From a virus: a stretch of 64,000 nt of DNA. The first letter of the stretch is position 1. Each line of letters begins with the position of its first letter. A model generated the notes under the pieces. It saw only the letters and a list, made by a program, of their open reading frames with translations. It searched no databases and was not told the DNA's origin. Both the position numbers and the translations under genes were made by a program. The stretch is from IMG/VR virus record IMGVR_UViG_3300025264_000007, positions 1 through 64,000 of that record; one strand, written 5' to 3'. Of this stretch, positions 1,464-50,150 are shown in pieces.

Positions 1464-2477
1464 CAGGTTTGTGCTGGTTTCCCAACTCCCTGGACTATAT
1501 CATCATCTACAGCACAATCTGTTTAGATGTCGGACGCTAATCTTGTATTATGCTGAAAGTTCGTTCAGCCCCAAGTAGTCTCTGCACCTTCCTACCACGC
1601 TTGGTAGGCTTGGCTCAGGATTGCCATACCCCTAAGGGCTTAGGTTTCCCTGAATTCATCCGATTTGCAACAATCATTTCTGACTGAGGTCACCCTTGAT
1701 GAGGCGTTCTCATTAACCAAATTATGATACGGTTCCGTATTCTTTAATAAATTTATCAAACTCTTGATTTACAAATTCAGGGTTATGTTTCCCCCTATCT
1801 TTTATAACATATGGAGTGAACCCTGCCTTTATGATTTCTTTGATCTTGATGCGATCCCTATTTTGTACCTGTTTCACACTGTGTGCTTCAGTTATCTTTT
1901 TGTAATGCCAAACTCCGTTCCACATAACAGCAACCTTGATAGACGGGATAATAACATCGGCATCCCAGCCATTAAACATTGGTTCATTACATAAAACCTC
2001 TTTGTAGACACCGCCGCAAAGCTCGGAAAATAGAATCTCGTTTTTACTTCGCCGTGTATCCTTTTGAACCTCGGCTGAAATCCTGCCTCCTTTTCTTCCC
2101 AACGCTTGCCAATCTCTAAACTTAGCAGCACATTTTCTGCTGCAATATTTCTGTGATCTTTTAGTCTGTGCAACATCAAAATGTTGATCACAACCCTTAC
2201 AAAACCGTTTTACCATTTCAACTGGCTTTCCCATTCCTGATCGGTAGTTCACGCCAGTCATAGTTTTACTTATTTTCTCGTTGATTTCTTTTCTTTTGCT
2301 TTTTGTTGAGAAGCTCCGAGCGCATTCACGACTACAAAACTTTCCATTAGAATATTTGCTGTATTTTACAGCCTCTTTACTATCACAATTCATACATTTC
2401 ATTTCTTTTCCTCCTATAGTATATAGTCGGCTTGAACTAAAAACGTATAGCTTTGTCTCATTTCCTATTCAGTTTTC
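1464..2477 (-). ncRNA. Group I intron (tRNA-type, IC3-like core) carrying a homing endonuclease
   Basis: The core at about 1490-1680 has the classic conserved elements in order on the minus strand. P is TTCAGGGAAACCTAAG, Q is GGCAATCCTGAGCCAAGCC, R is GGTGCAGAGACTA and S is GATATAGTCC. R and S pair to form P7, and P and Q carry P4. The Q segment closely matches the tRNA-Leu group I introns of cyanobacteria and plastids. The endonuclease gene sits between the 5' splice region and P3. The 3' boundary is placed at the G at 1464 next to the tRNA half, and the 5' boundary at 2477 after TTTTT. The core is seen directly; the boundaries are inferred. Confidence 0.82.
1722..2402 (-). CDS. Intron-encoded homing endonuclease, zinc-finger + EDxHD/Vsr-like
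   Basis: This 226-residue protein begins at an ATG behind TATAGGAGG. The first 100 residues contain two short treble-clef-type zinc motifs (CMNC..FCSREC at 3-27 and FCKGC..YCSRKC at 67-92), typical of phage HNH and homing enzymes. The C-terminal half carries E122, a D-A-D pair in WDADVII (about 147-149) and WNGVWHY with H166. That layout resembles the EDxHD homing endonucleases of the Vsr-like fold. It lies entirely inside the group I intron, so its likely job is intron mobility by cutting the intron-less tRNA site. The catalytic class is inferred from the motif pattern. Confidence 0.75.
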   Translation of the reverse strand: MKCMNCDSKEAVKYSKYSNGKFCSRECARSFSTKSKRKEINEKISKTMTGVNYRSGMGKPVEMVKRFCKGCDQHFDVAQTKRSQKYCSRKCAAKFRDWQALGRKGGRISAEVQKDTRRSKNEILFSELCGGVYKEVLCNEPMFNGWDADVIIPSIKVAVMWNGVWHYKKITEAHSVKQVQNRDRIKIKEIIKAGFTPYVIKDRGKHNPEFVNQEFDKFIKEYGTVS

Positions 2478-5282: not shown

Positions 5283-6053
5283 CTATTTCTTTATATAGGT
5301 TTGAAGAGCTAAAATAAGCTCTGCTGGCCCTTGAATGTCGTGGTAAGCGGCGCATTTCATAGCAATATCCACATCATTTCCGTCGGGGGTTATTTTATCC
5401 CCAAAAAATATGCATTGAGCAGGAGACTCTCCTATATTTTGGAGAGCATAGCTTTTATCCCACCCTTCACGCGTCACGTCAATCGATATTTGACCACCGA
5501 GCCTAAATGATAATCCCCATCCACTAAAATCTTCTCGCAACTTATCGATAATCTTTTTTCGTTCTCCGCTTTTTTGGTCCCACTTCACATAATCTTCGCG
5601 CTGGGTAGTGGTGCAGTTTCTGCCAACTACAGAAAAGTTAATTTGGCTTTCTCGCCACTCAACAAATGTTCCGGTCTTAAATTTGGTATGGGTATCTGCC
5701 GCAGTTTTGAGGAGCACGTTAACAATATGATTAATATCCGCGCGCGAGTAGTGGTCAAGCAGGGTCACCTTGTGGATAAGCTCCGGCTCGATAGCTCTAG
5801 TTTCATCATCCATATCCAGGCGTGTATTATAAACTCTCGTTCCGTTGCATGCAAACACGCGGTCAAACACGTTGAGTAAAGTAGCGTTTGGAATTTGCTC
5901 TTCTATTTTGGCGAAGTCTGATCCTGTTACTAGATACTTTTTAGATGCCATCGGGAGCGATTCGAGCGCGGTCACCACCTCCTCGGAAATTCTTTGGCGA
6001 GGGTCGGTAAGTGTTCCATCCATATCAAACAAAAATGCTTTGGCCTTTTTCAT
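5283..6053 (-). CDS. Eukaryotic-type phosphomannomutase homologue (HAD superfamily)
   Basis: The family interconverts mannose-6-phosphate and mannose-1-phosphate, feeding GDP-mannose and nucleotide-sugar synthesis. Residues 10-14 are DMDGT (HAD motif I). The sequence then follows eukaryotic PMM closely: VTGSD..KIEEQ, INFSVVGR, a YVKWD..SGERKKII segment, the GGQISIDV..GWDKSYAL block and FFGDK..PDGNDVDIA. The length (256 aa) matches that family. I chose the ATG at 6051-6053, which overlaps the previous stop as ATGA; upstream codons lack a ribosome binding site. The phage may use it to modify host or virion glycans, which is inference. A different sugar phosphatase specificity cannot be excluded. 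Confidence 0.85.
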   Translation of the reverse strand: MKKAKAFLFDMDGTLTDPRQRISEEVVTALESLPMASKKYLVTGSDFAKIEEQIPNATLLNVFDRVFACNGTRVYNTRLDMDDETRAIEPELIHKVTLLDHYSRADINHIVNVLLKTAADTHTKFKTGTFVEWRESQINFSVVGRNCTTTQREDYVKWDQKSGERKKIIDKLREDFSGWGLSFRLGGQISIDVTREGWDKSYALQNIGESPAQCIFFGDKITPDGNDVDIAMKCAAYHDIQGPAELILALQTYIKK

Positions 6054-8324: not shown

Positions 8325-9320
8325 TCATGAAATTAATTCATAATCTAGTATTTTTATTTCCCGCGAAAGAGGTTCTTCGGTTTTGGCGCATAAATCGGTC
8401 GTCAAATACTTCTTATTTCCGTCTGGAAGCACAGTAGCGACGTTTGAACCCTCTGGAAGCTCGCTGGCCTTCAAAATAGCCCCAAAAACATTGGCTCCAG
8501 ACGAAATACCGACAGATAGCCCTAAGTTATTGATTTGTCTAGCAATATTTATCGCATCGGCGTCATTTACTCGTAAAACAGGGCTAAGTGCTTGTAAATC
8601 CACGATTTTTGGTATAAAGCTGTCTCCGGTGCCTTCAATTCGATGTTTTCCGTCTTTATTCTCTCTCGGAAGGATGGGGTAAGCCTTAAAGTCGTTTTTT
8701 TCGCTTTTATTGGTCGAAAGTTCCGAAAAATAGTGAAAAAAGCCCATTACGGTGCCCCCAGTGCCGATTCCGGCAATAAAAACGTCTAATTCTCCCAAAT
8801 TATTGATTCTTAGTGCATTTTCGAGTTCGGGAGCCGTTGTTTGGGCGTGTGCAAGCACGTTCCACGAGTTTTCGAACTGTTTTGGGCAGAAATAGCCGTT
8901 TTTCTTGCTTTTCTTGGCTGCGAGGGCTATACACTTGTCAAACCCGCCCTCTTTTAGCGTTATTTCGAGCAATTTTGCTCCGTAGAAGCGCATAAGGCGT
9001 TTTCTTTCGGTAGAAAGCCAGCTTGGCATGTATATTTGAACGGGATGACCCAGGTAAGCCCCCATAGCAGCAAAAGAAATGCCCGTATTGCCGCTTGTGG
9101 CTTCTACTATGGTGTTTCCGGGTTCTAGCTGACCCGCTATGTAGCCGGCTTCAAGGATTTGGATGGCCATGCGGTCTTTGATGCTGCCGGTAAAGTTACC
9201 AACCTCGTATTTTGCTAAAATATAGAGTTTTTTCCCTTCAAACTCGCACTCTAGTCTTAGGGTGGGTGTGTTTCCAACGAAATTTCGGAGTTTTTTGAGT
9301 TTTTCCGGCACTGTGTTCAT
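8325..9320 (-). CDS. cysK: Cysteine synthase / beta-substituting PLP enzyme
   Basis: The family makes cysteine from O-acetylserine and sulfide with pyridoxal phosphate. K48 in GNFTGSIKDR is the expected PLP lysine, residues 75-80 are the TSGNTG loop, and GIGTGGTVMG and GISSGAN are the phosphate-binding and C-terminal PLP motifs. The length (331 aa) is normal, so the enzyme looks intact. It is the last gene of the operon with PrkA, SpoVR and DUF444, 9 nt after PrkA. The beta-synthase class cannot be resolved beyond CysK/CysM/CBS-like by eye. In infection it could supply cysteine or handle sulfide or redox stress; that is inference. Confidence 0.92.
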   Translation of the reverse strand: MNTVPEKLKKLRNFVGNTPTLRLECEFEGKKLYILAKYEVGNFTGSIKDRMAIQILEAGYIAGQLEPGNTIVEATSGNTGISFAAMGAYLGHPVQIYMPSWLSTERKRLMRFYGAKLLEITLKEGGFDKCIALAAKKSKKNGYFCPKQFENSWNVLAHAQTTAPELENALRINNLGELDVFIAGIGTGGTVMGFFHYFSELSTNKSEKNDFKAYPILPRENKDGKHRIEGTGDSFIPKIVDLQALSPVLRVNDADAINIARQINNLGLSVGISSGANVFGAILKASELPEGSNVATVLPDGNKKYLTTDLCAKTEEPLSREIKILDYELIS

Positions 9321-9329
9321 TGGGAGTGC

Positions 9330-11273
9330 CTAGCTGTCTCTCCAGAGGTTGTTGGCGGCAAACTTAATAACCTCGGCAGCCGAGTCTTCGCTGTAATTGT
9401 AATCTTCGATCAGCGTTTTCACCATTTCGTTATATTTGCCCTGTTGCTTTTTGTCGCGGCTCTTGGATTTGGTAACAATGCGTGAAATTTGCTTAACTGA
9501 GGAGGTTAGTTTGTTTTCGATCGCCTCTCTCAAAGGCGTATAAGACTGCCAATCTACTTTTTCTCCGCGCCGAAGCTTGGAAAACATGTAGGCGGTAATA
9601 TCCACGCGGAAATTATCTTTAGCGGTGCCGACGATGCCGATCTGTTCTTCTATCGACACTAAGAATTTCTCATCGGGTGCAATTTCTTCGTTGGTTATCC
9701 GATCCTTCAGCGTTGCCATATTAACATATGCCTCGGCGTGGTCGAGATAGTTATTAAATAGCGATTCCGCTTGCTCGTCATAAGCGGAAACGAATGCCTT
9801 GGTAATCTCTTTTTCCAAGATGACGAGATATTCCTCGTGAAGAGTCTTGCCCAGGAAATCAAGATACCGACTGCGGTCATCCTCTACTACAATTTGATCT
9901 TTAACTTGTTTGATTAACGCTTCGCGGATAGAAATAGGCGTCACCATATTTTTGTCGCTATCAGACAAAGCAGAATCTATAGCCTTCATGATAAATCGAG
10001 TGGAAATGCCAGTCATTCCTTCTCCTCGCGCCTCATCGCGCAAGTCATTAATATCGACCTTTTTTATATGCCCTTTCTCTATGACTTCTGCCCCATCGTA
10101 TAGTTTCATTTTAGTGAGGGGGTCTACTTTGTTGGATAAGTGCAGCCGGCTAAGAACTGCGAACATGGCGGCCACTTCTAAGGTGTGTGGGGCAACATGG
10201 GCGTCGAAGTCAGAGAGCGCGAGCATCTTCTCATAAATCTTTTGTTCTTCCGAATATTCCAGGCAGTAAGGAACATTGACCCTAACGATGCGATCTAGAA
10301 TTGCTTCATTAGTATTTTCAGATTTAAACTTGTTCCATTCGGCTTCATTACAATGAGCCAAAATAACACCGTCAAAATAAATCATTGGACCTTTACCTGG
10401 CGATGGAATAGATTTTTCTTGAGTGGCTGTAATCATGGTATGCAAGAACTCAATCTCATTTTTGAATACTTCCACAAACTCTACGATCCCGCGGTTGCCT
10501 ACGTTGAACGCGCCGTTCAAAGATAGAACTCGGGGATCGTCTTCGGCATATAGATCAAGCTTAGAAATATCTTCGCTCCCGATCAACATAGTCACATCCT
10601 GGCTGTTCGCATCCATGGGAGGAACAACACCAACTCCGCGCCTGCCGCGCACCGAGAAAGAAGATTGAGCAATAGGCATAGAAGTATAATCGTTGTCATA
10701 TTCTTCCTTTAGTCTAAAACGACAAACGGGGCATAGGTCGCCCTCAATACGCAATCCATAAATGCTTTGAAACTGTTCTCGTAATGAACGAGGAATCAAG
10801 TGGAGTGGTTCTTCATGAATAGGGCACCCCTCAATATGATACATGGAGTCGCACCCCTCCAGGGCTGCTTTGACATGTTCCATAAGGGCTGATTTGCCCG
10901 CGCCAACCGGGCCCAGCAGCAGAAGCACTTGGCGGCTTTCCTCGCCCTTAAGGGAAGCTGATCTGAGAAACCTCATAATTTTGGCAAGGGATCGCTCCAT
11001 GCCAAAAAACCTGCTTTGGAAATAATCGTATGTTTTTAATTCTTCCCCGTTGAATAGTTTGTTACAGCGCGGGCTGCCTTGAGACATTCTTGTGATTCCA
11101 TAACCGGTGATGGCCTCATAGAGCCTCTTGTGAGCAAGTTGGGTTATAGACGAATCTTTCTCCAGCAGTTTAAGATAGTCTTCCAGAGTTCCGTGGAATG
11201 TTTCCACCTTTTTCTTTTCTTGGTGTTTCTCAACCAAGGTGAGAAATTTCTCTGACTTCTTTATTTTCGTCAT
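9330..11273 (-). CDS. prkA: PrkA-family serine protein kinase (AAA+)
   Basis: The length (647 aa) and layout match bacterial PrkA/YeaG. An N-terminal AAA+ domain carries Walker A GPVGAGKS (121-128) and the characteristic CPIHEEPLHLIP segment, followed by a C-terminal PrkA domain. In Bacillus and E. coli the family acts in starvation, sporulation-linked and stationary-phase responses, and its genes sit with those of DUF444 (YeaH/YhbH) and SpoVR (YcgB) proteins. All three are here in one operon, with 3 nt to SpoVR. No frameshift or missing key residue is seen. A phage copy could reprogram a host starvation response. Confidence 0.95.
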   Translation of the reverse strand: MTKIKKSEKFLTLVEKHQEKKKVETFHGTLEDYLKLLEKDSSITQLAHKRLYEAITGYGITRMSQGSPRCNKLFNGEELKTYDYFQSRFFGMERSLAKIMRFLRSASLKGEESRQVLLLLGPVGAGKSALMEHVKAALEGCDSMYHIEGCPIHEEPLHLIPRSLREQFQSIYGLRIEGDLCPVCRFRLKEEYDNDYTSMPIAQSSFSVRGRRGVGVVPPMDANSQDVTMLIGSEDISKLDLYAEDDPRVLSLNGAFNVGNRGIVEFVEVFKNEIEFLHTMITATQEKSIPSPGKGPMIYFDGVILAHCNEAEWNKFKSENTNEAILDRIVRVNVPYCLEYSEEQKIYEKMLALSDFDAHVAPHTLEVAAMFAVLSRLHLSNKVDPLTKMKLYDGAEVIEKGHIKKVDINDLRDEARGEGMTGISTRFIMKAIDSALSDSDKNMVTPISIREALIKQVKDQIVVEDDRSRYLDFLGKTLHEEYLVILEKEITKAFVSAYDEQAESLFNNYLDHAEAYVNMATLKDRITNEEIAPDEKFLVSIEEQIGIVGTAKDNFRVDITAYMFSKLRRGEKVDWQSYTPLREAIENKLTSSVKQISRIVTKSKSRDKKQQGKYNEMVKTLIEDYNYSEDSAAEVIKFAANNLWRDS

Positions 11274-11276
11274 CTA

Positions 11277-12593
11277 TTAAAACTCCCAAGTGTCATCTTC
11301 TATAACAGTAGTAAATCTTACACCACCTTGCCATAGAGTGTTAATGTGCTCAAAAACTTTATTTGCTTCTGATAACTCTAAATCCCTTCCGTCGTGCTCA
11401 TGTTTTAATATAAGCGTTCCGTCTTGGAGCAGTTCGCTAACAAATATTACGGGCACCGAATTAAGCCCTATGTTTGTAATTAGATCGTCTCGGATAGTTT
11501 TCCAACTCTTCTCGCCCGTAACCTCGGTAATGCGATTATATCCTTCTTGTGGTTGGAATGAATAACTAAACAAATTCAGTTCTTTGCACAAATCATAATC
11601 TAAATAAGATTTAATAAAACTTTCGTCGTTGTGTGTTTCTCGTATTCGCAAGCATTCACTAAATCCTTGTTTTTCCTCAATATATTTGAACATTTTATAT
11701 CCAAGGTGATAGGGATTTATTCTTCCCAAATGAGGTCTAATCACTTGATTATGCAGCCGAATAAATGCGAGATGATATTCGGGAGGTAAATCTAGCGACG
11801 TAAGGATTTTTTCATGGATCAGGCATGCCCAACCCTCATTCATAATTTTCGTCAGTGCCTGCGGCATAAAATATGATGACTCTTGAGCTACGATATTAAT
11901 AAGGTCTCTCTCCCATTCTTCCAAGAAGCGACTATATTCCGCCATGAATTGTAAGACGTTTATATCAGGTTCTAGGGGGATGCGGTTTAGATCAAATTCA
12001 TCCCATCTTCCTGTTGTGTCAGATATTTTAAGATCGTGGTAATATTTTAAAAGCTCTTTGTGGTTTCTCCTTTTCATTCCAGGGGTGCGAGGAATTTGAA
12101 AGCGAATAGAATGGCAGGCATCCAATATTTTTTCTACCCTCTCTATTCCAATAGTAGGGTCTTCCACATATTTCTTGATGCGCTTAGAGGCTGACTTAAA
12201 TCGAGAAAGAGCATTGTCTGCGTCAGTCTCGATGAACATGCGGTTGTTCTTAAAGAAATCGCTATGCCCGACGCAATGTGCCATTGTAAGCACATGAGTG
12301 GGCATCGGATTTTCTGTCATCAAGTAAGAGATGCTGGGATTGGAGTTAATGATCATTTCATACGGAAGACCCGACATTCCTAAATTATATTCTGTCTGAA
12401 TGCGATCAAAAGATTTTCCGTATGACCAGTGTCGGTAGTGTGTAGGTAAGCCTGAATAGGCCATGTGCCCGATCATCTCCTTATAGTCGCATATTTCATA
12501 ATCAATCGGGTACCAGTCTAGCCCAAGCTCTTTCCCGAGATTACAAATTTTAGAATCCCATTGCTGTAGCTCGCTCATTGACCATTCAGCCAT
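11277..12593 (-). CDS. SpoVR/YcgB family protein
   Basis: This 438-residue protein has the SpoVR pattern: W-x-DWYPIDYEICDYKEMIG near the N-terminus, MPTHVLTMAHCVGHSDFFKNN, an NEGWACLIHEKI block and a C-terminal beta region. It is slightly shorter than E. coli YcgB (about 510 aa). Biochemical function of the family is unknown, but genetically it partners PrkA and DUF444. Its start overlaps the DUF444 stop by 1 nt. It is probably needed as part of the three-protein unit. Confidence 0.95.
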   Translation of the reverse strand: MAEWSMSELQQWDSKICNLGKELGLDWYPIDYEICDYKEMIGHMAYSGLPTHYRHWSYGKSFDRIQTEYNLGMSGLPYEMIINSNPSISYLMTENPMPTHVLTMAHCVGHSDFFKNNRMFIETDADNALSRFKSASKRIKKYVEDPTIGIERVEKILDACHSIRFQIPRTPGMKRRNHKELLKYYHDLKISDTTGRWDEFDLNRIPLEPDINVLQFMAEYSRFLEEWERDLINIVAQESSYFMPQALTKIMNEGWACLIHEKILTSLDLPPEYHLAFIRLHNQVIRPHLGRINPYHLGYKMFKYIEEKQGFSECLRIRETHNDESFIKSYLDYDLCKELNLFSYSFQPQEGYNRITEVTGEKSWKTIRDDLITNIGLNSVPVIFVSELLQDGTLILKHEHDGRDLELSEANKVFEHINTLWQGGVRFTTVIEDDTWEF

Positions 12594-13780
12594 TATTTCG
12601 TGCCTCCAAAAAGTTTCTTAAATGATTTCCAGATATCCCTGTGGTCTACCAGGCGCGTGCGCTTAAAGTCTTTATCTTCCGCGAGCTTCAGCCAATCCCA
12701 CAGTTTTTTTTCAGCCGTCCCAGTAAAAAGAAAACTGTCGTGGTCGAATATTTGTTGTTTTCCGATTTCAGTATAGCATGTCATCTGGCTTATCTCTTTA
12801 ATCCGTCGAAAGCTTTCTAGTGCTTCCTTATTGTCGATTGTCCAATTATCTCCATCGCCGCAATAGAAAGTGTAAATATTCCAGTTGTTGGGGTGATAAC
12901 GTTTCTCTATTATTTCTTCTACTTTTTTTATCCCCGTCGAAACTAATGTTCCTCCGTTGGGAATTTGCGTAAAGAATTGATTCTCGTTTACCTCGTGAGC
13001 GATGGCTGTGTGGGAAATAAATACCACATCTACTGCCGAGTATCGATGATTGAGAAATTGATAGAGAAGAAAAAAGAAACTTCTAGCTAGAAACTTTTTC
13101 GATTTATTCATCGATCCTGAAACATCCATTACGAAGAAGACCACGGCTGACGTGTTTTCTTTTTGAACCGGGGCTATGTGCTTATATCGCAAGTCACTTT
13201 CATGAAAAGGAAAACGATCATCCTTCTCGGGATCATAGGCTCCAGCTTTGATCGCTGCTTTTTTTCTTCTAATCTTTTGTTTTATAGTTTCTTTTTTTGA
13301 CAGCCGCGGGCGAATTCCCCAGGGTCGCTTCCCTTTGCGCTTCATTTTTTCTTCTGTAATAAACTTGAACCGTTTTTTTTCTAGTTCCGGAAGATTAAGA
13401 TCGGCAAAGAGATATTCTGCCAATTCTTCCAATGACATTTCTATCTCATATTTTTCGTCGCCGGCTTTGTCTCCGGGTTGGTCACCGGGTCGGGCTGCGG
13501 TCTTCCGCCGCTTACCAATGCGCTGCCCTTTCTTTACTTGTTTCCCCTGCGCAGACCCTACCGTTTTATTTTTCTCGTTACTGCCATATACAAAGCGGTG
13601 CTCTTTAATTCCCCTAACGGGAATTCGAATTTTCTTTTTGCCATTTTGACCGATAATACTTTCTTCGGCCACCACATCTTTAATGCTGTCTTTGATCGCC
13701 TTTTCTATTTTGTGGCGATGCCGCGAACGATCTCCCGATGCTCGGTCAGCAATTGTTTTATGTTCTCTAAAAGTGCTCAT
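12593..13780 (-). CDS. DUF444 (YeaH/YhbH) family VWA-like protein
   Basis: This 395-residue protein has a long basic, low-complexity N-terminal half and a C-terminal VWA-like domain with the MIDAS motif MDVSGSM (218-224). The family is encoded beside prkA and spoVR in many bacteria and is thought to work with the PrkA ATPase in the same way VWA proteins work with MoxR ATPases. It is the first gene of the four-gene operon. Its ribosome binding site lies inside an inverted repeat (13786-13822). Confidence 0.95.
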   Translation of the reverse strand: MSTFREHKTIADRASGDRSRHRHKIEKAIKDSIKDVVAEESIIGQNGKKKIRIPVRGIKEHRFVYGSNEKNKTVGSAQGKQVKKGQRIGKRRKTAARPGDQPGDKAGDEKYEIEMSLEELAEYLFADLNLPELEKKRFKFITEEKMKRKGKRPWGIRPRLSKKETIKQKIRRKKAAIKAGAYDPEKDDRFPFHESDLRYKHIAPVQKENTSAVVFFVMDVSGSMNKSKKFLARSFFFLLYQFLNHRYSAVDVVFISHTAIAHEVNENQFFTQIPNGGTLVSTGIKKVEEIIEKRYHPNNWNIYTFYCGDGDNWTIDNKEALESFRRIKEISQMTCYTEIGKQQIFDHDSFLFTGTAEKKLWDWLKLAEDKDFKRTRLVDHRDIWKSFKKLFGGTK

Positions 13781-13785
13781 AAATT

Positions 13786-13822
13786 TAAGATCCTACAGTA
13801 AGTAGTTTTTATTCGGATCTTA
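13786..13822 (-). promoter_or_regulatory. Inverted repeat that could mask the DUF444 ribosome binding site
   Basis: On the transcribed strand TAAGATCC (13815-13822) can pair with GGATCTTA (13786-13793) over a 21-nt loop. The second arm contains the AGGAT ribosome binding site, 5 nt before the DUF444 ATG, and the first arm overlaps the stop codon of the upstream gene. Pairing would hide the site, and ribosomes ending on the upstream gene would open it. Confidence 0.5.
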
Positions 13823-14113
13823 TGCGAGCGTGAGTTCTGAAATCTCTATCTCGTGGGAGTTCCCGTCGGGGTCCATGACGATTGCTACTCCACCCACATC
13901 GCCGCCGCTTGTGAGGAGTTCGGCAACTTCTCCGGTCATTGCCATTCTTTCGTAGTCAACTTTTTGACGTCCGCTGGCTGTGGTCTTCATCACCTTAGCC
14001 AGAACATTCCAGTTGACCATTTGCCCCGGCTGAAAGTCTGTTTCCATACGGAACCCTTGTTCATTTATTGCTTCTTTGATAAGCGTTCTCAATAAGGCTT
14101 TGGTGAGCTTCAT
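13820..14113 (-). CDS. Unknown protein with N-terminal LIKEAINE peptide
   Basis: This 97-residue protein begins MKLTKALLRTLIKEAINEQG, an amphipathic N-terminus shared with several neighbouring proteins and ending in L-x-x-E or I-x-E. This is similar to the capsid-targeting peptides cut by T4-like prohead proteases. The rest is beta-rich and contains PGQMVNWNVLAKV and a C-terminal EIEISELTLA, again SH3-like. Function is unknown. The gene overlaps its upstream neighbour by 4 nt. Confidence 0.75.
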   Translation of the reverse strand: MKLTKALLRTLIKEAINEQGFRMETDFQPGQMVNWNVLAKVMKTTASGRQKVDYERMAMTGEVAELLTSGGDVGGVAIVMDPDGNSHEIEISELTLA

Positions 14114-14337
14114 TTCTTGCGCTTCTTCGCCATCTTGCGGAAAGTCTTAGCAAGGTTATAACGCTTGCTTCCTTCTGGGCAGCTTTCGCTGCCAAACTTA
14201 TCTCCGGTGCAGACGCCCTCGGTTCCACGTCGCTCAATATCTTTCTCTGCGCCTTGAATCCACTTCTCATCTTTCTCATTGATTTTATTAATCTCTTCTT
14301 GGACCATAGTTCTAAGTTGTGTCATTGTAATTTTCAT
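14110..14337 (-). CDS. Unknown small basic protein with amphipathic N-terminus
   Basis: This 75-residue protein begins with an LRTMVQEEINKINEK helix like those of its neighbours and ends in a very basic tail (FRKMAKKRKK). It has two Cys residues (CTGDKFGSESC) that could form a disulfide or weak metal site. It overlaps the genes on each side by 1-4 nt. A packaged, DNA-binding internal protein would fit; this is inference. Confidence 0.7.
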   Translation of the reverse strand: MKITMTQLRTMVQEEINKINEKDEKWIQGAEKDIERRGTEGVCTGDKFGSESCPEGSKRYNLAKTFRKMAKKRKK

Positions 14338-15455
14338 TATCTATATCCCGTTGGGTCTCCGTCTGGGTGATTCTTTTTGTAGACCTGATTTAAATAGTTC
14401 TCTAATTCCTTTATAGTCTTTTGTTTTGTTGCCCGCATAAGTGAGGCGAGCATCTCTAAGGTCTTGCGGGCATCAGGATTGGAACTAACATTATGGAGTG
14501 GGTTGTCAATGTCTCGTGCAAAACGTCCAACGGCGTTGGGTGACCCAGCCAATCCCCGAAAGAATGCGGTGGCTTTTCGCTTGCGTTCTAACTCGTCTGA
14601 ATAATCCACCTTGCCTTGGACATTCGCTCCCTCAAATTGCTCTTTGCCAGCGAGGATATCTTGGGCGGCTTGAACAAACAAAAACACATCATCTTCACCT
14701 GCTTGTTTGCGGACCCTATCCTTATCCATACTCCTATCTCTAGGCTCTGGCTTATCAGTAATCTTTACTCCCGACTTCTCTACCTCTTGCTTGAAGTCCG
14801 CCAGTTTAGTGAGGGCTTTTTTCTTTCCGACCTCAACGTGCGGCCAAGTACTTTTATCGATATGAATATAATAAGGGATGCCCCTTTGTTCTGCTACTGC
14901 CACGCCTCGTTCTATTCCATCCATTTGATACCAGTTGAGAGAAAGTGCGGTTCTTCTTTCCATCTTATTGGAGAACATATCTTTTTCATTCCTATAAAGT
15001 GGGACAGCAAAATGTATCTCGTCAATGTAGGTGTCGGCATCATCAATATAGGGTTCGTCCAAAAGGATTCTATCTTCTGCCTCAAAGGCTTCTGAGTGTC
15101 CTGTCTTATCAACGTTGGCTGCCAACTTAGAAGACGTTCCTCTTTTTGGGTCAGCCCAATAATCCGTGGGGACTCCTTTATATTTTTGGGCCAAAGCCCG
15201 GCCATCCAATTTGAAGATAGCCCCTTGTGGATAGGTTCCTGTATAAGCATTGACTGGCGTTCTTGCGGTGGAAAAATAATAAAGCTTACCTTTACCTAAC
15301 TCAGCTTCCACTTCTTTAGTAAATCCACCGGACGCCATAAACTTATTGTCTTCAAGTATCTTGGCTGCTTTATTAATCCCGCTCGTATAGTGATAGACAA
15401 CATCGCTGATGCCTTCCTTCAGGAACTTGCGCCAGTTTTCCATTAGGAGTTTCAT
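14337..15455 (-). CDS. ADP-ribosyltransferase-like candidate injected protein
   Basis: This 372-residue protein begins MKLLMENWRKFLKEG, very close to the T4 internal-protein targeting peptide that ends FIAE|A. Cleavage after FLKE would follow the T4 gp21 rule. Directly after it comes DVVYHYTSGINKAAKILEDN, then YYFSTARTPVNAYTG and SEAFEAEDRIL. The HYT, FSTAR and downstream Glu order resembles the H-[ST]-E type ADP-ribosyltransferase fold, as in DarT-like and other toxin families. T4 injects the ADP-ribosyltransferase Alt, so a similar role is attractive. The similarity was judged by eye and is not proven. Confidence 0.6.
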   Translation of the reverse strand: MKLLMENWRKFLKEGISDVVYHYTSGINKAAKILEDNKFMASGGFTKEVEAELGKGKLYYFSTARTPVNAYTGTYPQGAIFKLDGRALAQKYKGVPTDYWADPKRGTSSKLAANVDKTGHSEAFEAEDRILLDEPYIDDADTYIDEIHFAVPLYRNEKDMFSNKMERRTALSLNWYQMDGIERGVAVAEQRGIPYYIHIDKSTWPHVEVGKKKALTKLADFKQEVEKSGVKITDKPEPRDRSMDKDRVRKQAGEDDVFLFVQAAQDILAGKEQFEGANVQGKVDYSDELERKRKATAFFRGLAGSPNAVGRFARDIDNPLHNVSSNPDARKTLEMLASLMRATKQKTIKELENYLNQVYKKNHPDGDPTGYR

Positions 15456-22816: not shown

Positions 22817-23355
22817 GAGTTATCTTCTCCTAGATAAAAGTCTTTACAGACTTGTTCGAATTTATTAATAGCGTTCCACAAAAGTGTGTCGAGGTCATCG
22901 ACTCCATGGTCAGGATAGTTGTCGTCGTAATACCTGGCCACTTCGTCAGCATCAAGGGACAGGAGTTCTTTGTCTTGCAGAACCTCCCCATCCATGCAAG
23001 CGTAGCCCCCTACTCGGCACTCGTCCTCCGAAATAGTTGTCATGGTGACTAGCCGATTCTGAAAATATGAGGTGTCGCGACTCGCAGCTAGAACCCAACC
23101 TTTGGGTCTCTCCCACTTTGTTTCCAAAGTAACGAGAAGGCGCTCAGTAGAAGGATCGTAATCGTAGTCAGCGACCTCTATCCACCCCACGCTACTCCAC
23201 TCGTCAGCATTAGGCACAAGTTGGAACAGTAACGAGTCTGACCCAAGCGCAGCACCTGTCGCATCATAATCGAAGGCAAAATCTTCTGCTTGCTCAGGCG
23301 TAATACCGTAAACGGTGACGTAGCTTCGGGTGGCGTCAATTTTAGTGCTCGTCAT
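22813..23355 (-). CDS. Acidic protein, unknown
   Basis: This 180-residue acidic protein has a ferredoxin-like beginning (SYVTVYGITPEQAEDFAFDY) and a beta-rich middle (VGWIEVADYDYDPSTERLL..LETKWERP). It sits between a methyltransferase and SlyD with 4-nt overlaps on both sides, so it is co-translated. No family is recognised with confidence. Confidence 0.7.
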   Translation of the reverse strand: MTSTKIDATRSYVTVYGITPEQAEDFAFDYDATGAALGSDSLLFQLVPNADEWSSVGWIEVADYDYDPSTERLLVTLETKWERPKGWVLAASRDTSYFQNRLVTMTTISEDECRVGGYACMDGEVLQDKELLSLDADEVARYYDDNYPDHGVDDLDTLLWNAINKFEQVCKDFYLGEDNS

Positions 23356-24116
23356 CTGTTTTCTCCTTTTTCTAGGTGATTACAAAGATTATCTAGTCGT
23401 TCCAATGATTTTTCTAGATAATCTTCTTCTATTTCACACCCTTTAAATGATCGTTCTGTGTTGGCGCAAGCAATCATCGTCGATCCACTCCCGCTAAAAC
23501 AGTCTAACACAATATCGCCAGGGTGTGTATGGGCTTTAATCATTCTTTCAATTAAAACGATAGGTTTTTGGGTAGGATGCCATCCGGCGTATTCTTTGCT
23601 CGTGGTGTGATTGTTTTTCGCCCACACATCAGTCGGAATCTTCCCCAGGGGGTTATTTTGGGCTCCGGCCCGCACATTTTTGGGCATTTTGTAAGGAATT
23701 CGCACGTTGTCGGCATAAAATGGGAACTCTTTTCCCTTAGAATACATTAAAACATCTTCGTGCTTGCGAGGGAACTTTTTCCTTGTGCGGCCGCCCCAGT
23801 CATACGACCAAATGATCCAATTCTGGTAGTGAGCGTCCGGAATATTATTCAATACGTCTAGCTTGTAGCGTAAAAAGGTGTCTTTTTTGGTAGTTCCCCA
23901 CACATAAAAGCAGGCACCCGGCTTCATTACGCGAAAACATTCTTTGGTCCATTGGTCGCACCATCTTAAATAGTCTCCCTCGGAAGCCCACTGGTTATCC
24001 CAGGAATCTTTGATAATTTCAAAGTAAGGAGGGTCAACAATGACCAAGTCTATTGATTCATCCGCCACCGTCTTGAGGTAGGAAAGGCAATCAGCTTTCT
24101 GAAGATCCGCTGTCAT
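23352..24116 (-). CDS. DNA (adenine-N6/cytosine-N4) methyltransferase, beta-class order
   Basis: This 254-residue enzyme has motif IV DPPY at 28-31, then the target-recognition middle and finally the SAM-binding motif DCFSGSGST. That order (catalytic motif before SAM motif) is the beta class of amino-methyltransferases. The HPTQKP block is also typical. DPPY favours N6-adenine. Its recognition site cannot be deduced. No restriction partner is adjacent, so it may be an orphan that protects phage DNA. Confidence 0.9.
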   Translation of the reverse strand: MTADLQKADCLSYLKTVADESIDLVIVDPPYFEIIKDSWDNQWASEGDYLRWCDQWTKECFRVMKPGACFYVWGTTKKDTFLRYKLDVLNNIPDAHYQNWIIWSYDWGGRTRKKFPRKHEDVLMYSKGKEFPFYADNVRIPYKMPKNVRAGAQNNPLGKIPTDVWAKNNHTTSKEYAGWHPTQKPIVLIERMIKAHTHPGDIVLDCFSGSGSTMIACANTERSFKGCEIEEDYLEKSLERLDNLCNHLEKGENR

Positions 24117-27143: not shown

Positions 27144-27433
27144 TTTCTTTTTTTCCTGGGCTGCGGAATGCCGGCCTCGTTCATTAAGAAATCTAAATGC
27201 CACTGGTCAAAAGCGTTTATCTCTTTTTGTCTTTTTCGCCGCTCGCGCTTGTAATCGATCTTTGGAACCCATCCCATATAATACATGACCGAGCGCAAAA
27301 CACGCGGGTCTTGCTTCTTTAGCATTTGTACAATTTGATGTGCTTTTGCACGAACCTGACGGTGGGTCAGGGGTTTAGTGTTGTACCCATTGTGCGTGGT
27401 GATGTACCCCGCTAAAAGCAAACTAACCATCAT
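27140..27433 (-). CDS. Small basic protein with N-terminal hydrophobic segment
   Basis: This 97-residue protein starts MMVSLLLAGYITTHNG, continues with a basic helix (THRQVRAKAHQIVQMLKK) and ends in PRKKRK. It overlaps the methyltransferase stop by 11 nt. No family is recognised. Confidence 0.6.
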   Translation of the reverse strand: MMVSLLLAGYITTHNGYNTKPLTHRQVRAKAHQIVQMLKKQDPRVLRSVMYYMGWVPKIDYKRERRKRQKEINAFDQWHLDFLMNEAGIPQPRKKRK

Positions 27434-28313
27434 TTAAGACCAAGTGCGCCTGCGCTTTTCGGATGCGTTCGATTGCTAGCTCGCGATACTCGTCGTTGAT
27501 TTCAAACCCGATAAAGTCGCGGTTATTTTCGAGCGCCACCACTGCGGTGGTACCAGATCCAATAAAGGGATCGAGAACAACTCCGCCCTCAGGGCAACTC
27601 GATAAAATAGGATCAGCGATGAGTTCTGGCGGATAAACAGCAAAGTGGGCACCTCGATAGCTTTTTGTAGAGATATCCCATACCGTAAACTTCGGGCGCG
27701 TCAGTGTTTCGCCGGCTTCAATACGCTTGCGGAGTTTTTCGTAGTGAGAAGCTTGATTGACACTCGAAATGGCAAAACCTTCTTTGCCATGAGCATCTTT
27801 ATCTTTACGTTTACTAATATTGTTCTTGGAGAATGCGCGACGGATCGAAATCTCTTTCTGCGGCACTCGCGGTTGATCAAAGTAATAACCCTTAGTAACC
27901 TTAGTAAACATGTAAAGTTTTTCGTGGCTTACCCAAAACCGATCTTTGGCCGACATGGGTTGGGGATTGGGCTTGCTCCAAATCACTTCGTTACGCAAAA
28001 TCCACCCACGATTGGTCATTTCAATTTCAAATCGGCTAGGAATCTGTGCAAGACACTTCTTAATATAAGTGTCACCGATGTTGACCCAGCACACCCCTGT
28101 CTTTTTAAGCACTCGTTGAACTTCGTCGAAAATATTACACAGATCATTCACATAATCTTGATAACTTTCTTCCAAGCCAATCTGGCGATCCTTTTTATAA
28201 TCACGAAGATTATAATAGGGAGGTGAGGTGATACACATGTCAACCGACTCGGCAGGAAGCTTCTGAAGTTCTTCCAGCGAGTCGCCTAAATGAATGACGT
28301 TTCTCTCTAGCAT
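27423..28313 (-). CDS. DNA methyltransferase, TSPPY (probable N4-cytosine) type
   Basis: This 296-residue enzyme has motif IV TSPPYYNLRDY near residue 30 and the SAM motif DPFIGSGTT near the C-terminus, the beta-class order. TSPPY is typical of N4-cytosine methyltransferases, although adenine enzymes with this motif exist. It overlaps the upstream gene by 7 nt. That gene may encode its restriction partner. Confidence 0.9.
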   Translation of the reverse strand: MLERNVIHLGDSLEELQKLPAESVDMCITSPPYYNLRDYKKDRQIGLEESYQDYVNDLCNIFDEVQRVLKKTGVCWVNIGDTYIKKCLAQIPSRFEIEMTNRGWILRNEVIWSKPNPQPMSAKDRFWVSHEKLYMFTKVTKGYYFDQPRVPQKEISIRRAFSKNNISKRKDKDAHGKEGFAISSVNQASHYEKLRKRIEAGETLTRPKFTVWDISTKSYRGAHFAVYPPELIADPILSSCPEGGVVLDPFIGSGTTAVVALENNRDFIGFEINDEYRELAIERIRKAQAHLVLNDG

Positions 28314-38181: not shown

Positions 38182-40286
<2,105 letters not shown>

Positions 40287-40309
<23 letters not shown>

Positions 40310-41237
40310 CTTCATTCTCCTTTACGTTTAAGATTAATATTTCATTAGATTTTCCCATCTTCTTGACAGTCGCTTGGGAAGCGGCATTGAGCAAATCCAA
40401 GATGGGGGTAATTATCTCTTTATCTTTTAGCGCCTCGGAATTCTGGATCCCTTCCATCAGCGCAATACTCTTTTTGAGGTCACGGCGCACAGCTTTCTCT
40501 TCTGCGGTATAAATATTCTTCATACCATAACTCCAAACAGGATACTCGATTTGATAATCTTTGTATAGTTCCAAAATTTCGGGATGGCGATTATATGAAA
40601 TTGCCCAGTTATTCTTTTTCTTTATTTCTTTCGCGAACCTGAGATGATCGAAATCCTTATGCGTCGAACCCCTCTCACCGTATAGAGTAGAGTTTTCCAA
40701 AAGATATGGTGGGTCAGCGTAGATAAAAGTCTCATCGTCGTGCCTCCGTAAGCTGTCTTCAAAGTCTGCCTGCTCTACACTTAGAGAGTGACATACAAAG
40801 TTTTTTAGGCGGTCGATGCTGCTTTGGGTAAACCTCTTCTCCGCGGCTTGGTTGGAGTATCCTGCACTCAGAGTGCATCCGCTAAATGAGGAGCGGTTCA
40901 AAGCATAGAACATACAGGCCCGCTGCATGGCATCGTAATCTATCCAAGCCTGTTTCTTAAGAAAATCTGAGAACATTTTGGGGGTGCAAGGATGGAACGA
41001 CGTCTCAAGAAGAGTGGCGACTGCTTCTGGCTGTGTCAAAACATGCTGCCAGAAGTTGGTGAGAGGCTCAAAGATATCGTAGCCATGAACTCTGACGCCC
41101 TGAGAGGCGTAATGAATTTCAATGGAACCACCGCCAAAAAAGGGACTGACAATTTCTGTCAGGTCTTTTGGGAAATATTTGGTTATTTCTTTGAGTGCTC
41201 TTGTTTTACCACCGGGGTATCTTAAGAGAGATTTCAA
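40287..41237 (-). CDS. Dam-like D12-class N6-adenine DNA methyltransferase
   Basis: This 316-residue enzyme has the SAM-binding SPFFGGGS motif near residue 32 before the catalytic DPPYLLENSTLYG motif, the alpha-class order of the Dam/MboI family. The start is TTG behind GAGGAAGA. The adjacent barrel gene overlaps its stop by a few codons. Recognition sequence cannot be deduced; a GATC-like site would be typical for the family. Confidence 0.92.
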
Positions 41238-48296: not shown

Positions 48297-48324
48297 ACTA
48301 TAGCACTTATCCTGCAAAGGTCAA
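48297..48324 (-). promoter_or_regulatory. Sigma70-like extended -10 promoter
   Basis: The -35 is TTGACC (48319-48324), the spacer is 16 nt and the -10 is TATAGT (48297-48302) preceded by TGC. It overlaps the end of the FtsH gene. Confidence 0.8.
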
Positions 48325-50150
48325 GTAATTTCTTCGGGCTCGTCGAAATAGTTGTCGAGAATTGAAAACATTCCCTCTAGCTCTGATGCCATCACCGTAT
48401 CTTGCTCCAGAAGCATATTAGACAACACTACCAGATGCTCGCGCTTGGCCGCCAGCAGAATCTCTGCCTCGCGCAGCGCATCGGCGATGATCTCCCTCAC
48501 CGAGCGATCAAACTGATCTTTAGTTAGTTCCGAAGAGTCGCTGGAGCGGGGAGCATAGCCTTCGGTCTTTCCAAAATAAACGGGGCCAAGAGCCCCCATC
48601 CCATAATCTTTGACCATTTTTTCTGCCACTTGTTTGGCACGCATCAAATCATTGGAAACGCCTGTGCTGGTGCCTTCCTCTCCATAAAACATTTTTTCTG
48701 CCACATAGCCACCCAGCAAAACCTTAATGGAGGCTATATTTTCTTTCTTGTTCCATGAATATTTATCATCTTCAGGCAATTGCATAGTGAGACCGAGCGC
48801 CTGACCGTGAGGAATGATCGTGACCTTATGCAAAGGATCCGCATCTGCTAGGTAATACGCCAAGAGAGCGTGGCCTGCCTCGTGAATCGCCGTCGCACGG
48901 CGCGCTCGATCGGTCATCTTCATAGACTTGCGCGGCTTCCCTATTATTAGTTTATCGCGCGCCTGCTCAAGGTGGCCTCGATCGACAGACGCGCTCCCCT
49001 CCATCGTAGCGCGGATCGCTGCTTCGTTCACCAGATTAGAAAGATCTGCTCCCGAAAAACCAGTGGTCATCCTCGCTATCTCATTTAAATCTACGGCAGT
49101 ATCAAGGGGCACTCCCTTACAGTGTATATCTAAAATTTGCTTACGCCCATGAGCGTCAGGGAGAGGTATATGCACCTTTCGGTCAAAACGACCGGGGCGC
49201 AACAGAGCCTTATCCAGAACCTCTGCGCGGTTAGTCGCCGCCAATACAATAATGCCACTATGCTCCGAAAACCCGTCCATTTCTACCAGTAGCTGATTCA
49301 ATGTCTGCTCGCGCTCGTCATGACCACCGCCGGAACCGGAGCCTCTTTTTCTTCCCACAGCGTCTATTTCGTCAATAAAAATAATACATGGAGCAAGACT
49401 TTTGGCTTGATCAAACAGGGCGCGAACTCGGGCTGCACCAACTCCCACAAACATTTCCACAAAATCGGATCCTGAAATAAGCAAGAAAGGGACGTTGGCT
49501 TCGCCAGCCACCGCCTTAGCCAGAAGGGTCTTGCCGGTTCCCGGCGCGCCCACCAACAAAGCTCCCTTTGGGAGTTTGCTGCCCATGCGGGTAAAGCGAG
49601 AGGGGTGCTTTAAAAAATACACCACCTCCTCAAGTTCTGCTTTGGCCTCCTCGCATCCGGCAACGTCAACAAAGCGAGTATGGTTAGCTTCAGGTAGAGA
49701 AAGACGCGCCTTGGTTTTAGCAAATCCGTCAACCTTCCCCGCGGAGGCAGATAAATTTTTGATCAAAAGATACAAAAAATAAAACAGGATCAGGAACGGC
49801 AACCACGACAGCAGGAGGGTCACCCACAGTGAGGGCGCTTCCGCCTCTAAAAATCTTACCTCTAAGTTCTTTTTGGTCGCCAGCTTATTAACGAAATCAT
49901 CGGTAAGGGGCGCGGTAGTCACATATACCCGCTCCCCCAATTCCAGCCGCCAGTTATTTCCCTGCACCACAAAGCGACCGGGATTGTGCTCGTTGACATT
50001 ATCAAGGAGCGAGAGAATTCTAGTATAACTCACCTCCTCTACAGACGGCTGGTGCCTTTTATCTGCCCAGGAGGCTAATGCTGAAATTAATAAAAAAGCG
50101 CCCAACCACATCGCTAGAACTCGTAGTTTTCGACTATAAAATATTCCCAT
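48321..50150 (-). CDS. ftsH: FtsH ATP-dependent zinc metalloprotease
   Basis: This 609-residue protein is a full-length FtsH. It has two N-terminal membrane spans (about 10-28 and 108-130), Walker A GAPGTGKT (201-208), Walker B IIFIDEID (256-263), the second region of homology (RPGRFDR) and the zinc-binding HEAGH (423-427). It sits in the inner membrane and degrades membrane and short-lived cytosolic proteins. Phage-encoded FtsH is known from some cyanophages. Here it could alter host proteolysis, for example of a lysis-lysogeny or stress regulator. No defect is visible. Confidence 0.96.

What the first reader, a model, noticed from the sequence alone, without database searches (positions are those of the whole stretch)
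8325..13780. Phage operon of PrkA kinase, DUF444 and SpoVR with a cysteine synthase
The three-protein unit PrkA/YeaG, DUF444/YeaH/YhbH and SpoVR/YcgB is a known bacterial cluster linked to starvation, stationary phase and sporulation. Here all three appear intact, in one operon (gaps of 3 and -1 nt) in a phage, and are followed 9 nt later by a complete cysteine synthase. I infer that the phage imposes or copies a host starvation-type state, perhaps with sulfur or redox control. I know of no well-described phage with the whole set plus CysK, but cannot check databases here.
Basis: partly seen in the sequence, partly recalled or inferred. Interest (0 to 1): 0.75.

Follow-up and report, generated by a model that had tools for sequence, protein, structure and literature searches.

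The report
Phage starvation-type operon with sulfide enzyme
A clade of large marine T4-like phages carries a complete, strongly conserved copy of the three-gene PrkA / DUF444 / SpoVR stress operon known from bacteria, in rearranged order, and in this phage it is followed by a 'cysteine synthase' whose closest relatives instead break cysteine down to hydrogen sulfide and serine.

Summary
In detail: 8325-13780, minus strand, encodes intact DUF444 > SpoVR > PrkA > a CysK-like PLP enzyme, with spacings of -1, 3 and 9 nt. It is genuine phage DNA: large contigs with the same operon carry a T4-type capsid protein (13/13) and usually a terminase (11/12), and a 190-kb relative has the same layout. The set is not unique in phages: at least 163 IMG/VR stretches encode a close PrkA, and Thermus phage phiYS40 and relatives and huge phages have all three genes. 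In this marine lineage the genes always run DUF444-SpoVR-PrkA, a rotation of the bacterial PrkA-DUF444-SpoVR. PrkA, SpoVR and DUF444 trees each put the marine copies in one fully supported clade, so the unit entered once and was inherited. Functional residues are intact and selection is strong. Best reading: an AAA+ motor (PrkA; kinase activity unproven) with a MIDAS-vWA adaptor and SpoVR, remodelling host or phage protein(s) in a starvation/stress setting. The 'cysteine synthase' belongs to the Fusobacterium Fn1055 clade (cysteine to H2S plus serine), fails the curated CysK/CysM cut-offs, and accompanies the triad only in the nearest subclade. The starvation-state idea is plausible but untested.

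The parts
12593..13780 (-). DUF444/YhbH/YeaH-type protein with a C-terminal vWA domain carrying an intact MIDAS motif (D219-x-S221-x-S223, T278, D309); first gene of the operon
   Evidence: PF04285 345 bits. MIDAS residues invariant in marine phages, bacteria and Thermus phages. Model's vWA domain matches NorD and Rea1/MDN1 MIDAS structures
11277..12593 (-). SpoVR-family protein with conserved H106-x3-H110 and E253-G-x-A-x3-H260; second gene
   Evidence: PF04293 390 bits. H106, H110, E253 and H260 are identical in all 27 marine phage and all 20 bacterial rows. Model pLDDT 84, no PDB match at E<=0.001
9330..11273 (-). PrkA/YeaG family AAA+ protein (AAA_PrkA plus PrkA C-terminal domain), Walker A GPVGAGKS intact; third gene
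   Evidence: PF08298 462 bits and PF06798 265 bits; PDB relative 9xip; 250 of 647 positions >=97% identical in 81 phage sequences
8325..9320 (-).
   Evidence: Nearest PDB 5b53/5z5c/5b55 (E 6e-78); 100/100-supported clade with Fusobacterium/Bacteroidota enzymes, Asp233 conserved; below the CysK, CysM and CBS cut-offs
13799..13808 (-). AAACTACTTA leader element 19-28 nt upstream of the DUF444 start; candidate promoter or operator (inferred)
   Evidence: Same decamer at -17 or -28 (one at -14) in 9 of 11 close relatives; 18 copies on the gene strand and 0 on the other in 223 kb; absent upstream of gp23

Best explanation
This is a vertically inherited, phage-adapted copy of the bacterial PrkA-DUF444-SpoVR system in a clade of large marine T4-like phages. 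It was acquired once as a unit and rearranged to DUF444-SpoVR-PrkA. Most likely mechanism (inferred): PrkA is an AAA+ motor; DUF444 is its MIDAS/vWA adaptor, analogous to NorQ-NorD, RavA-ViaA and Rea1; SpoVR is the third component, probably the effector or client, with a conserved His/Glu site that could bind metal. The machine would remodel or activate host (or phage) protein(s) so that infection completes in slow-growing, nutrient- or oxygen-stressed cells. In the subclade of this phage an Fn1055-type PLP enzyme has been added. It would turn cysteine plus water into H2S and serine, changing cysteine/sulfide balance and possibly protecting against oxidative stress. Shown here: gene identities, intact motifs, order, monophyly, selection, phage context and enzyme clade. 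Inferred: complex formation, substrate, timing and benefit.
For: Family identity. Intact Walker A, MIDAS and SpoVR His/Glu residues across phages and bacteria. One fully supported marine clade in each of the PrkA, SpoVR and DUF444 trees. Invariant DUF444-SpoVR-PrkA order in marine phages against PrkA-DUF444-SpoVR in bacteria. Mean nonsynonymous change 0.09-0.14 for the triad against 0.19-0.37 for four neighbours, with synonymous change 0.70-0.83. T4-type gp23 in 13/13 and TerL in 11/12 large triad phages. vWA fold match to NorD, including a NorQ complex, and to Rea1 MIDAS. E. coli yeaG and yeaH act together in N starvation, and AAA+ residues are required (PMC4664914). Fn1055 clade with conserved Asp233; Fn1055 makes H2S and serine from cysteine (PMC9865163).
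Against: No functional data for any phage copy, and the molecular substrate of the bacterial system is unknown. The triad lies in the head/packaging module of Thermus phage Lalka27a, which hints at a particle-assembly role. Two large gp23 relatives (183 and 175 kb, not shown to be complete) lack PrkA, so it is not essential to T4-like growth. The PLP enzyme is missing from close relatives that keep the triad (L010, L011, L012, L014), so the two functions need not be linked. Its active-site environment was not modelled.
Confidence: 0.5

Rival explanations
1. The triad serves virion morphogenesis or genome packaging: the AAA+/vWA/SpoVR machine remodels capsid, portal or internal proteins rather than host metabolism.
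For: In Thermus phage Lalka27a the three genes lie between portal/minor head protein and TerL, and in phiYS40 only two annotated genes separate PrkA from the TerL gene. AAA+/MIDAS pairs commonly mature large assemblies (general knowledge; Rea1/MDN1 and NorD structures).
Against: In the marine lineage the triad is tens of kilobases from TerL and gp23 in most contigs with both; G004 is an exception at about 4.4 kb from gp23. Its neighbours there are PhoH, glycosyltransferases, a PMM-like HAD and unknowns. The leader motif is not shared with gp23. The triad is missing from large gp23 relatives.
Confidence: 0.17
2. Ordinary AMG cargo that copies the host stress response generally (rpoS-type or persistence effect), with no phage-specific target; the fourth gene is a normal cysteine synthase supporting protein synthesis.
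For: yeaGH promotes rpoS-dependent adaptation (PMC4664914). spoVR is an abundant AMG in an OMZ virome (PMC8940887). Other phages carry canonical cysK.
Against: Rearranged, monophyletic and under strong constraint over a whole clade, which is more than recent cargo. The fourth gene is outside the canonical CysK/CysM clade and below their cut-offs.
Confidence: 0.25
3. Assembly chimera or host DNA: a bacterial operon joined to phage sequence.
For: The genes are of bacterial origin. One bacterial MAG contig (L175) carries the same arrangement.
Against: The operon recurs in >=163 viral stretches. Large contigs carry gp23 and TerL. The pol-to-triad spacing is conserved (47 kb here, about 44.5 kb in the 190-kb relative, same strand). 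The L175 contig itself carries TerL and nests inside the phage clade, so it is a mis-binned phage.
Confidence: 0.02

Closest known systems
Bacterial PrkA(YeaG)-DUF444(YeaH/YhbH)-SpoVR(YcgB) operon, Clostridia/Deltaproteobacteria type
   Same: All three proteins, end to end, functional motifs intact; PrkA up to 62% identical to bacterial copies; bacterial copies lie next to the phage clade in the PrkA tree
   Different: Gene order rotated (DUF444-SpoVR-PrkA), single phage clade, extra PLP enzyme in the nearest subclade
Thermus phages phiYS40, phiLo, MN1, Lalka27a (DUF444, SpoVR, PrkA)
   Same: Whole set, in the same order as in the marine phages
   Different: PrkA about 33% identical and in a separate clade, so an independent acquisition on the tree; no CysK annotated in the neighbourhoods read; in the head/packaging module in Lalka27a
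Huge phages LR756502, LR745206, LR756504
   Same: Encode all three proteins
   Different: E. coli-type PrkA (62-65% to YeaG), a third acquisition; the CysK of LR745206 is not linked to its triad
Fn1055 of Fusobacterium nucleatum (PDB 5b53; L-cysteine + H2O to H2S + L-serine)
   Same: Same 100/100 clade, 46-47% identity to Fusobacterium homologues, Asp233 equivalent, C-terminal NKKYL[ST]TDL motif
   Different: Phage operon context; activity untested
AAA+/vWA pairs NorQ-NorD, RavA-ViaA, Rea1 MIDAS
   Same: An AAA+ protein with a MIDAS-vWA partner; the DUF444 model matches NorD and Rea1 MIDAS
   Different: PrkA is a different AAA+ family and SpoVR has no counterpart there

Membership tests
PrkA/YeaG family (PF08298 + PF06798) | Both Pfam domains over the whole protein with intact Walker A | tested here: met
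   462 and 265 bits; GPVGAGKS at 121-128
PrkA/YeaG family (PF08298 + PF06798) | NCBIfam equivalog NF011999 cut-off | tested here: not met
   384 bits against a cut-off of 576: same family, not the same equivalog
PrkA/YeaG family (PF08298 + PF06798) | Protein kinase, protease or ATPase activity | not testable with these tools
   Kinase activity was not detected in a Bacillus PrkA (PMC13001217)
DUF444/YhbH (PF04285) | Pfam cut-off and MIDAS DxSxS...T...D | tested here: met
   345 bits; D219, S221, S223, T278 and D309 invariant
SpoVR (PF04293) | Pfam cut-off and family-wide conserved His/Glu residues | tested here: met
   390 bits; H106, H110, E253, H260
PrkA-DUF444-SpoVR operon | All three genes adjacent on one strand | tested here: met
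   Spacings -1 and 3 nt
PrkA-DUF444-SpoVR operon | Bacterial gene order PrkA-DUF444-SpoVR | tested here: not met
   Rotated to DUF444-SpoVR-PrkA in this lineage
Cysteine synthase A/B (CysK/CysM) | NCBIfam equivalog cut-offs TIGR01139 / TIGR01138 | tested here: not met
   232 against 350.95 and 176 against 394.2 bits
Cysteine synthase A/B (CysK/CysM) | Groups with E. coli CysK/CysM in a tree | tested here: not met
   Separated by a 100/100 branch
Fn1055-type cysteine hydroxyl-lyase | Clade membership and the Asp that is Asn in PDB 5b55 | tested here: met
   100/100 clade; Asp in all 21 clade rows, not in the CysK/CysM references. The importance of this Asp to catalysis is from my own knowledge of the structure work
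Fn1055-type cysteine hydroxyl-lyase | L-cysteine + H2O to H2S + L-serine | not testable with these tools
T4-like phage genome | gp23-type major capsid protein | tested here: met
   13/13 large relatives, 0/14 cellular controls. The window's own record is an 80.6-kb fragment without a TerL match; gp23 was not sought in it. Its polymerase is 90% identical to that of a gp23-bearing relative

The most novel reading that the evidence does not exclude
Large marine T4-like phages carry a self-contained machine that drives infected cells into, or keeps them viable in, a starvation/redox-protected state: a phage-evolved PrkA-DUF444-SpoVR AAA+/vWA complex with a phage-specific client, coupled in this subclade to enzymatic H2S release from cysteine. 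As far as I know that would be the first viral sulfide-producing protection module.
Probability: 0.2. Interest if true: 0.78.

Novelty: new variant of a known kind. Interest (0 to 1): 0.52.

Why it matters
PrkA-DUF444-SpoVR is widely distributed in bacteria, yet its molecular job is still open. A phage clade that has kept the whole machine under strong constraint, plus separate acquisitions in Thermus and huge phages, shows that the unit is portable and useful during infection. That argues against a function limited to sporulation and offers isolated Thermus phages as a genetic test bed. The fourth gene is a candidate viral H2S-producing enzyme hidden behind a 'cysteine synthase' label.

Tried and rejected
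1) Chimera or host contamination: rejected. 2) Recent donor: the nearest bacterial PrkA copies are at most about 62% identical, and the one bacterial MAG copy nested among the phages (L175) is on a contig with TerL, a mis-binned phage. 3) Late-gene control: the T4 late motif TATAAATA is not enriched (3 found, 1.7 expected) and NATAAATA is not general upstream of DUF444 (5/80); a different leader motif was found instead. Expression class is unresolved. 4) Sigma-70-like promoters were not above chance. 5) SpoVR model against PDB: no match at E<=0.001. 6) Defence system: no meaningful PADLOC hit for the four proteins. 7) A search for close relatives of the PLP enzyme in viral contigs gave only 2 loci because its patterns were query-specific, so its distribution was read from triad loci instead. 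8) The phage collection did not return Ralstonia phage RsoM2USA, reported to carry SpoVR and PrkA (PMC8504454), so counts of isolated phages are lower bounds. 9) A dN/dS ratio for the triad rests on 2-6 unsaturated pairs per gene, so raw pN was used.
Full report
WHAT IS THERE. The window is the first 64 kb of an 80,615-base IMG/VR virus record. On the minus strand at 13780-8325 four intact ORFs follow each other: DUF444 (395 aa), SpoVR (438 aa, 1-nt overlap), PrkA (647 aa, 3-nt gap) and a PLP enzyme (331 aa, 9-nt gap). Pfam confirms all four far above cut-off. The order is DUF444 > SpoVR > PrkA > PLP enzyme.

IT IS PHAGE DNA. A close PrkA was found in 163 IMG/VR stretches from six query peptides. 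In the 80 best, 79 have DUF444-SpoVR-PrkA in that order on one strand; in the 80th the contig ends just upstream of SpoVR. Of 12 large contigs searched, 11 hold a single terminase match, and 13 of 13 hold the T4-type capsid protein gp23, found in none of 14 cellular controls. All 15 large contigs tested hold SpoVR. The window's DNA polymerase is 90% identical to that of a 190-kb gp23-bearing relative with the same operon. Polymerase and operon lie 47 kb apart here and about 44.5 kb apart there, on the same strand. The chimera worry is therefore answered.

ORDER AND ANCESTRY. In bacterial genomes with all three genes in one run the order is PrkA-DUF444-SpoVR (56 loci, plus two with an extra PrkA fragment or paralogue). 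The only bacterial record with the phage order, L175, is a 305,838-base contig in a Methylococcaceae MAG that carries a terminase and nests in the phage clade: a mis-binned phage. Marine viral copies form one clade in the PrkA tree (27 rows, support 100), with Clostridia and other bacterial copies nearby. SpoVR and DUF444 give the same single clade (27 of 27, support 100; FastTree, local support only). So the unit was gained once, rearranged and inherited. Thermus phages have the same rotated order, but their PrkA falls in a separate clade with long branches. Huge phages have E. coli-type PrkA. This suggests at least three acquisitions; that the two rotations were independent is inferred. The triad is not universal in T4-like relatives: two gp23 relatives of 183 and 175 kb have no PrkA, though these records may be incomplete.

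CONSTRAINT AND CATALYTIC RESIDUES. Across 81 phage PrkA sequences, 250 of 647 positions are at least 97% identical, including most of Walker A GPVGAGKS. The DUF444 MIDAS residues and SpoVR H106/H110/E253/H260 are identical in all marine phage and all sampled bacterial rows. Among 12 close contigs, mean nonsynonymous change is 0.089 (PrkA), 0.134 (DUF444) and 0.141 (SpoVR), against 0.19-0.37 for four neighbouring genes and 0.22 for the PLP enzyme; synonymous change is 0.70-0.83, near saturation. These genes are used, not decaying cargo.

WHAT THE TRIAD PROBABLY DOES. PrkA is best called an AAA+ protein. In B. anthracis PrkA no kinase activity and negligible protease activity were detected after full purification, although an earlier study reported protease activity for the B. 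subtilis protein (PMC13001217). In E. coli yeaG and yeaH deletions give the same nitrogen-starvation phenotype, and point mutants of YeaG do not complement (PMC4664914). The DUF444 model (pLDDT 69 overall, mostly 80-94 over the vWA domain) matches MIDAS/vWA domains, among them Rea1/MDN1 and NorD bound to the AAA+ protein NorQ. That supports, but does not show, a motor-adaptor pairing like NorQ-NorD and RavA-ViaA. SpoVR (pLDDT 84) has no match in the PDB at E<=0.001; its invariant His/Glu set is a candidate metal site (inference). 'Sporulation' is only a name here.

THE FOURTH GENE. Its nearest solved relatives are 5b53, 5z5c and 5b55 (E 6e-78 and 3e-77), well ahead of classical cysteine synthases. 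5B53 is Fn1055 of Fusobacterium nucleatum, which converts cysteine and water to H2S and serine (PMC9865163). 5b55 differs at one Asp, which reads Asn in the aligned sequence; the phage has Asp there (D233). In a tree of 36 sequences the ten triad-phage enzymes, two Fusobacterium and nine Bacteroidota sequences form a 100/100 clade separate from E. coli CysK/CysM and from Lactococcus phage cysteine synthase. All 21 have the Asp; the CysK/CysM references do not. Scores are below the curated cut-offs for CysK (232 against 351), CysM and cystathionine beta-synthase. Eight of 248 sampled Bacteroidota genomes carry this type. It follows PrkA in 9 of the 80 best loci, all in the closest subclade, and is absent from L010, L011, L012 and L014. 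It is an optional addition.

CONTEXT AND EXPRESSION. Around the marine triad only the three genes are conserved in all 44 neighbourhoods compared; many relatives have PhoH about 6 kb downstream, and others a PMM-like HAD hydrolase. In most large contigs gp23 and terminase are tens of kilobases away. In Thermus phage Lalka27a the triad sits between the portal/minor head genes and TerL, so a morphogenesis role is kept as a rival. A decamer AAACTAYTTA lies at -17 or -28 (one at -14) of DUF444 in 9 of 11 close relatives, with 18 copies on the gene strand and none on the other in 223 kb. It is rare in the wider clade (1 of 68) and absent upstream of gp23. It may be an operon promoter; expression class is unknown.

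PRIOR KNOWLEDGE. spoVR has been reported as the most abundant sporulation-type AMG in an oxygen-minimum-zone virome (PMC8940887), SpoVR and PrkA in a Ralstonia jumbo phage (PMC8504454), and all three genes are in the phiYS40 record. The open-access literature searched held no paper describing the marine T4-like triad, its rotated order or the Fn1055-type companion; absence from that library is weak evidence of novelty.

VERDICT. Observation confirmed; interpretation partly supported. A new variant of a known system, moderately interesting, with two sharp testable points: the H2S activity, and the starvation versus assembly role of the triad.

Noticed in passing
window 1471-1756 (-): Group I intron (Rfam RF00028, 84.7 bits), just upstream, in the gene direction, of two tRNA matches (1315-1385 and 1236-1308).
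   Followed up: no
L175 (NHDW01000006.1, 305,838 bases): A contig in a Methylococcaceae TMED69 MAG is a mis-binned phage: rotated triad inside the phage clade and a terminase on the same contig.
   Followed up: yes
window 14337-15455, 14110-14337, 13820-14113 (-): Proteins upstream of the triad begin with similar tags (MKLLMENWRKFLKEG, MKITMTQLRTMVQEEINK, MKLTKALLRTLIKEAINE); similar starts occur in proteins of relatives. They might be targeting or propeptide sequences, untested.
   Followed up: partly
window 48321-50150 (-): 609-aa AAA ATPase that matches PADLOC IetA models (E 3e-40) and phrog_30773; a defence-type ATPase inside a phage.
   Followed up: no
window 38182-39768 (-): Phage-encoded GroEL-like chaperonin (phrog_5725, E 9e-143).
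   Followed up: no
window 5283-6050 (-): HAD protein matching eukaryotic phosphomannomutase (PF03332, E 6e-43), a few genes downstream of the operon in close relatives too.
   Followed up: partly
window 23352-24116, 27423-28313, 40287-41237 (-): Three DNA methyltransferase genes in one phage fragment.
   Followed up: no
MN688132.1 (Enterobacter phage LAU1) 1-3308: The record begins with yeaG/yeaH, the first nearly identical to E. coli YeaG (97.7%); this looks like a host flank in the deposited phage genome rather than a phage gene set.
   Followed up: partly
L310, L326, L302, L332, L320 and other contigs at about 32% PrkA identity: IMG/VR contigs (up to 363 kb) with the bacterial order PrkA-DUF444-SpoVR and E. 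coli-type PrkA; some have a terminase, others not, so part may be cellular or prophage DNA.
   Followed up: partly
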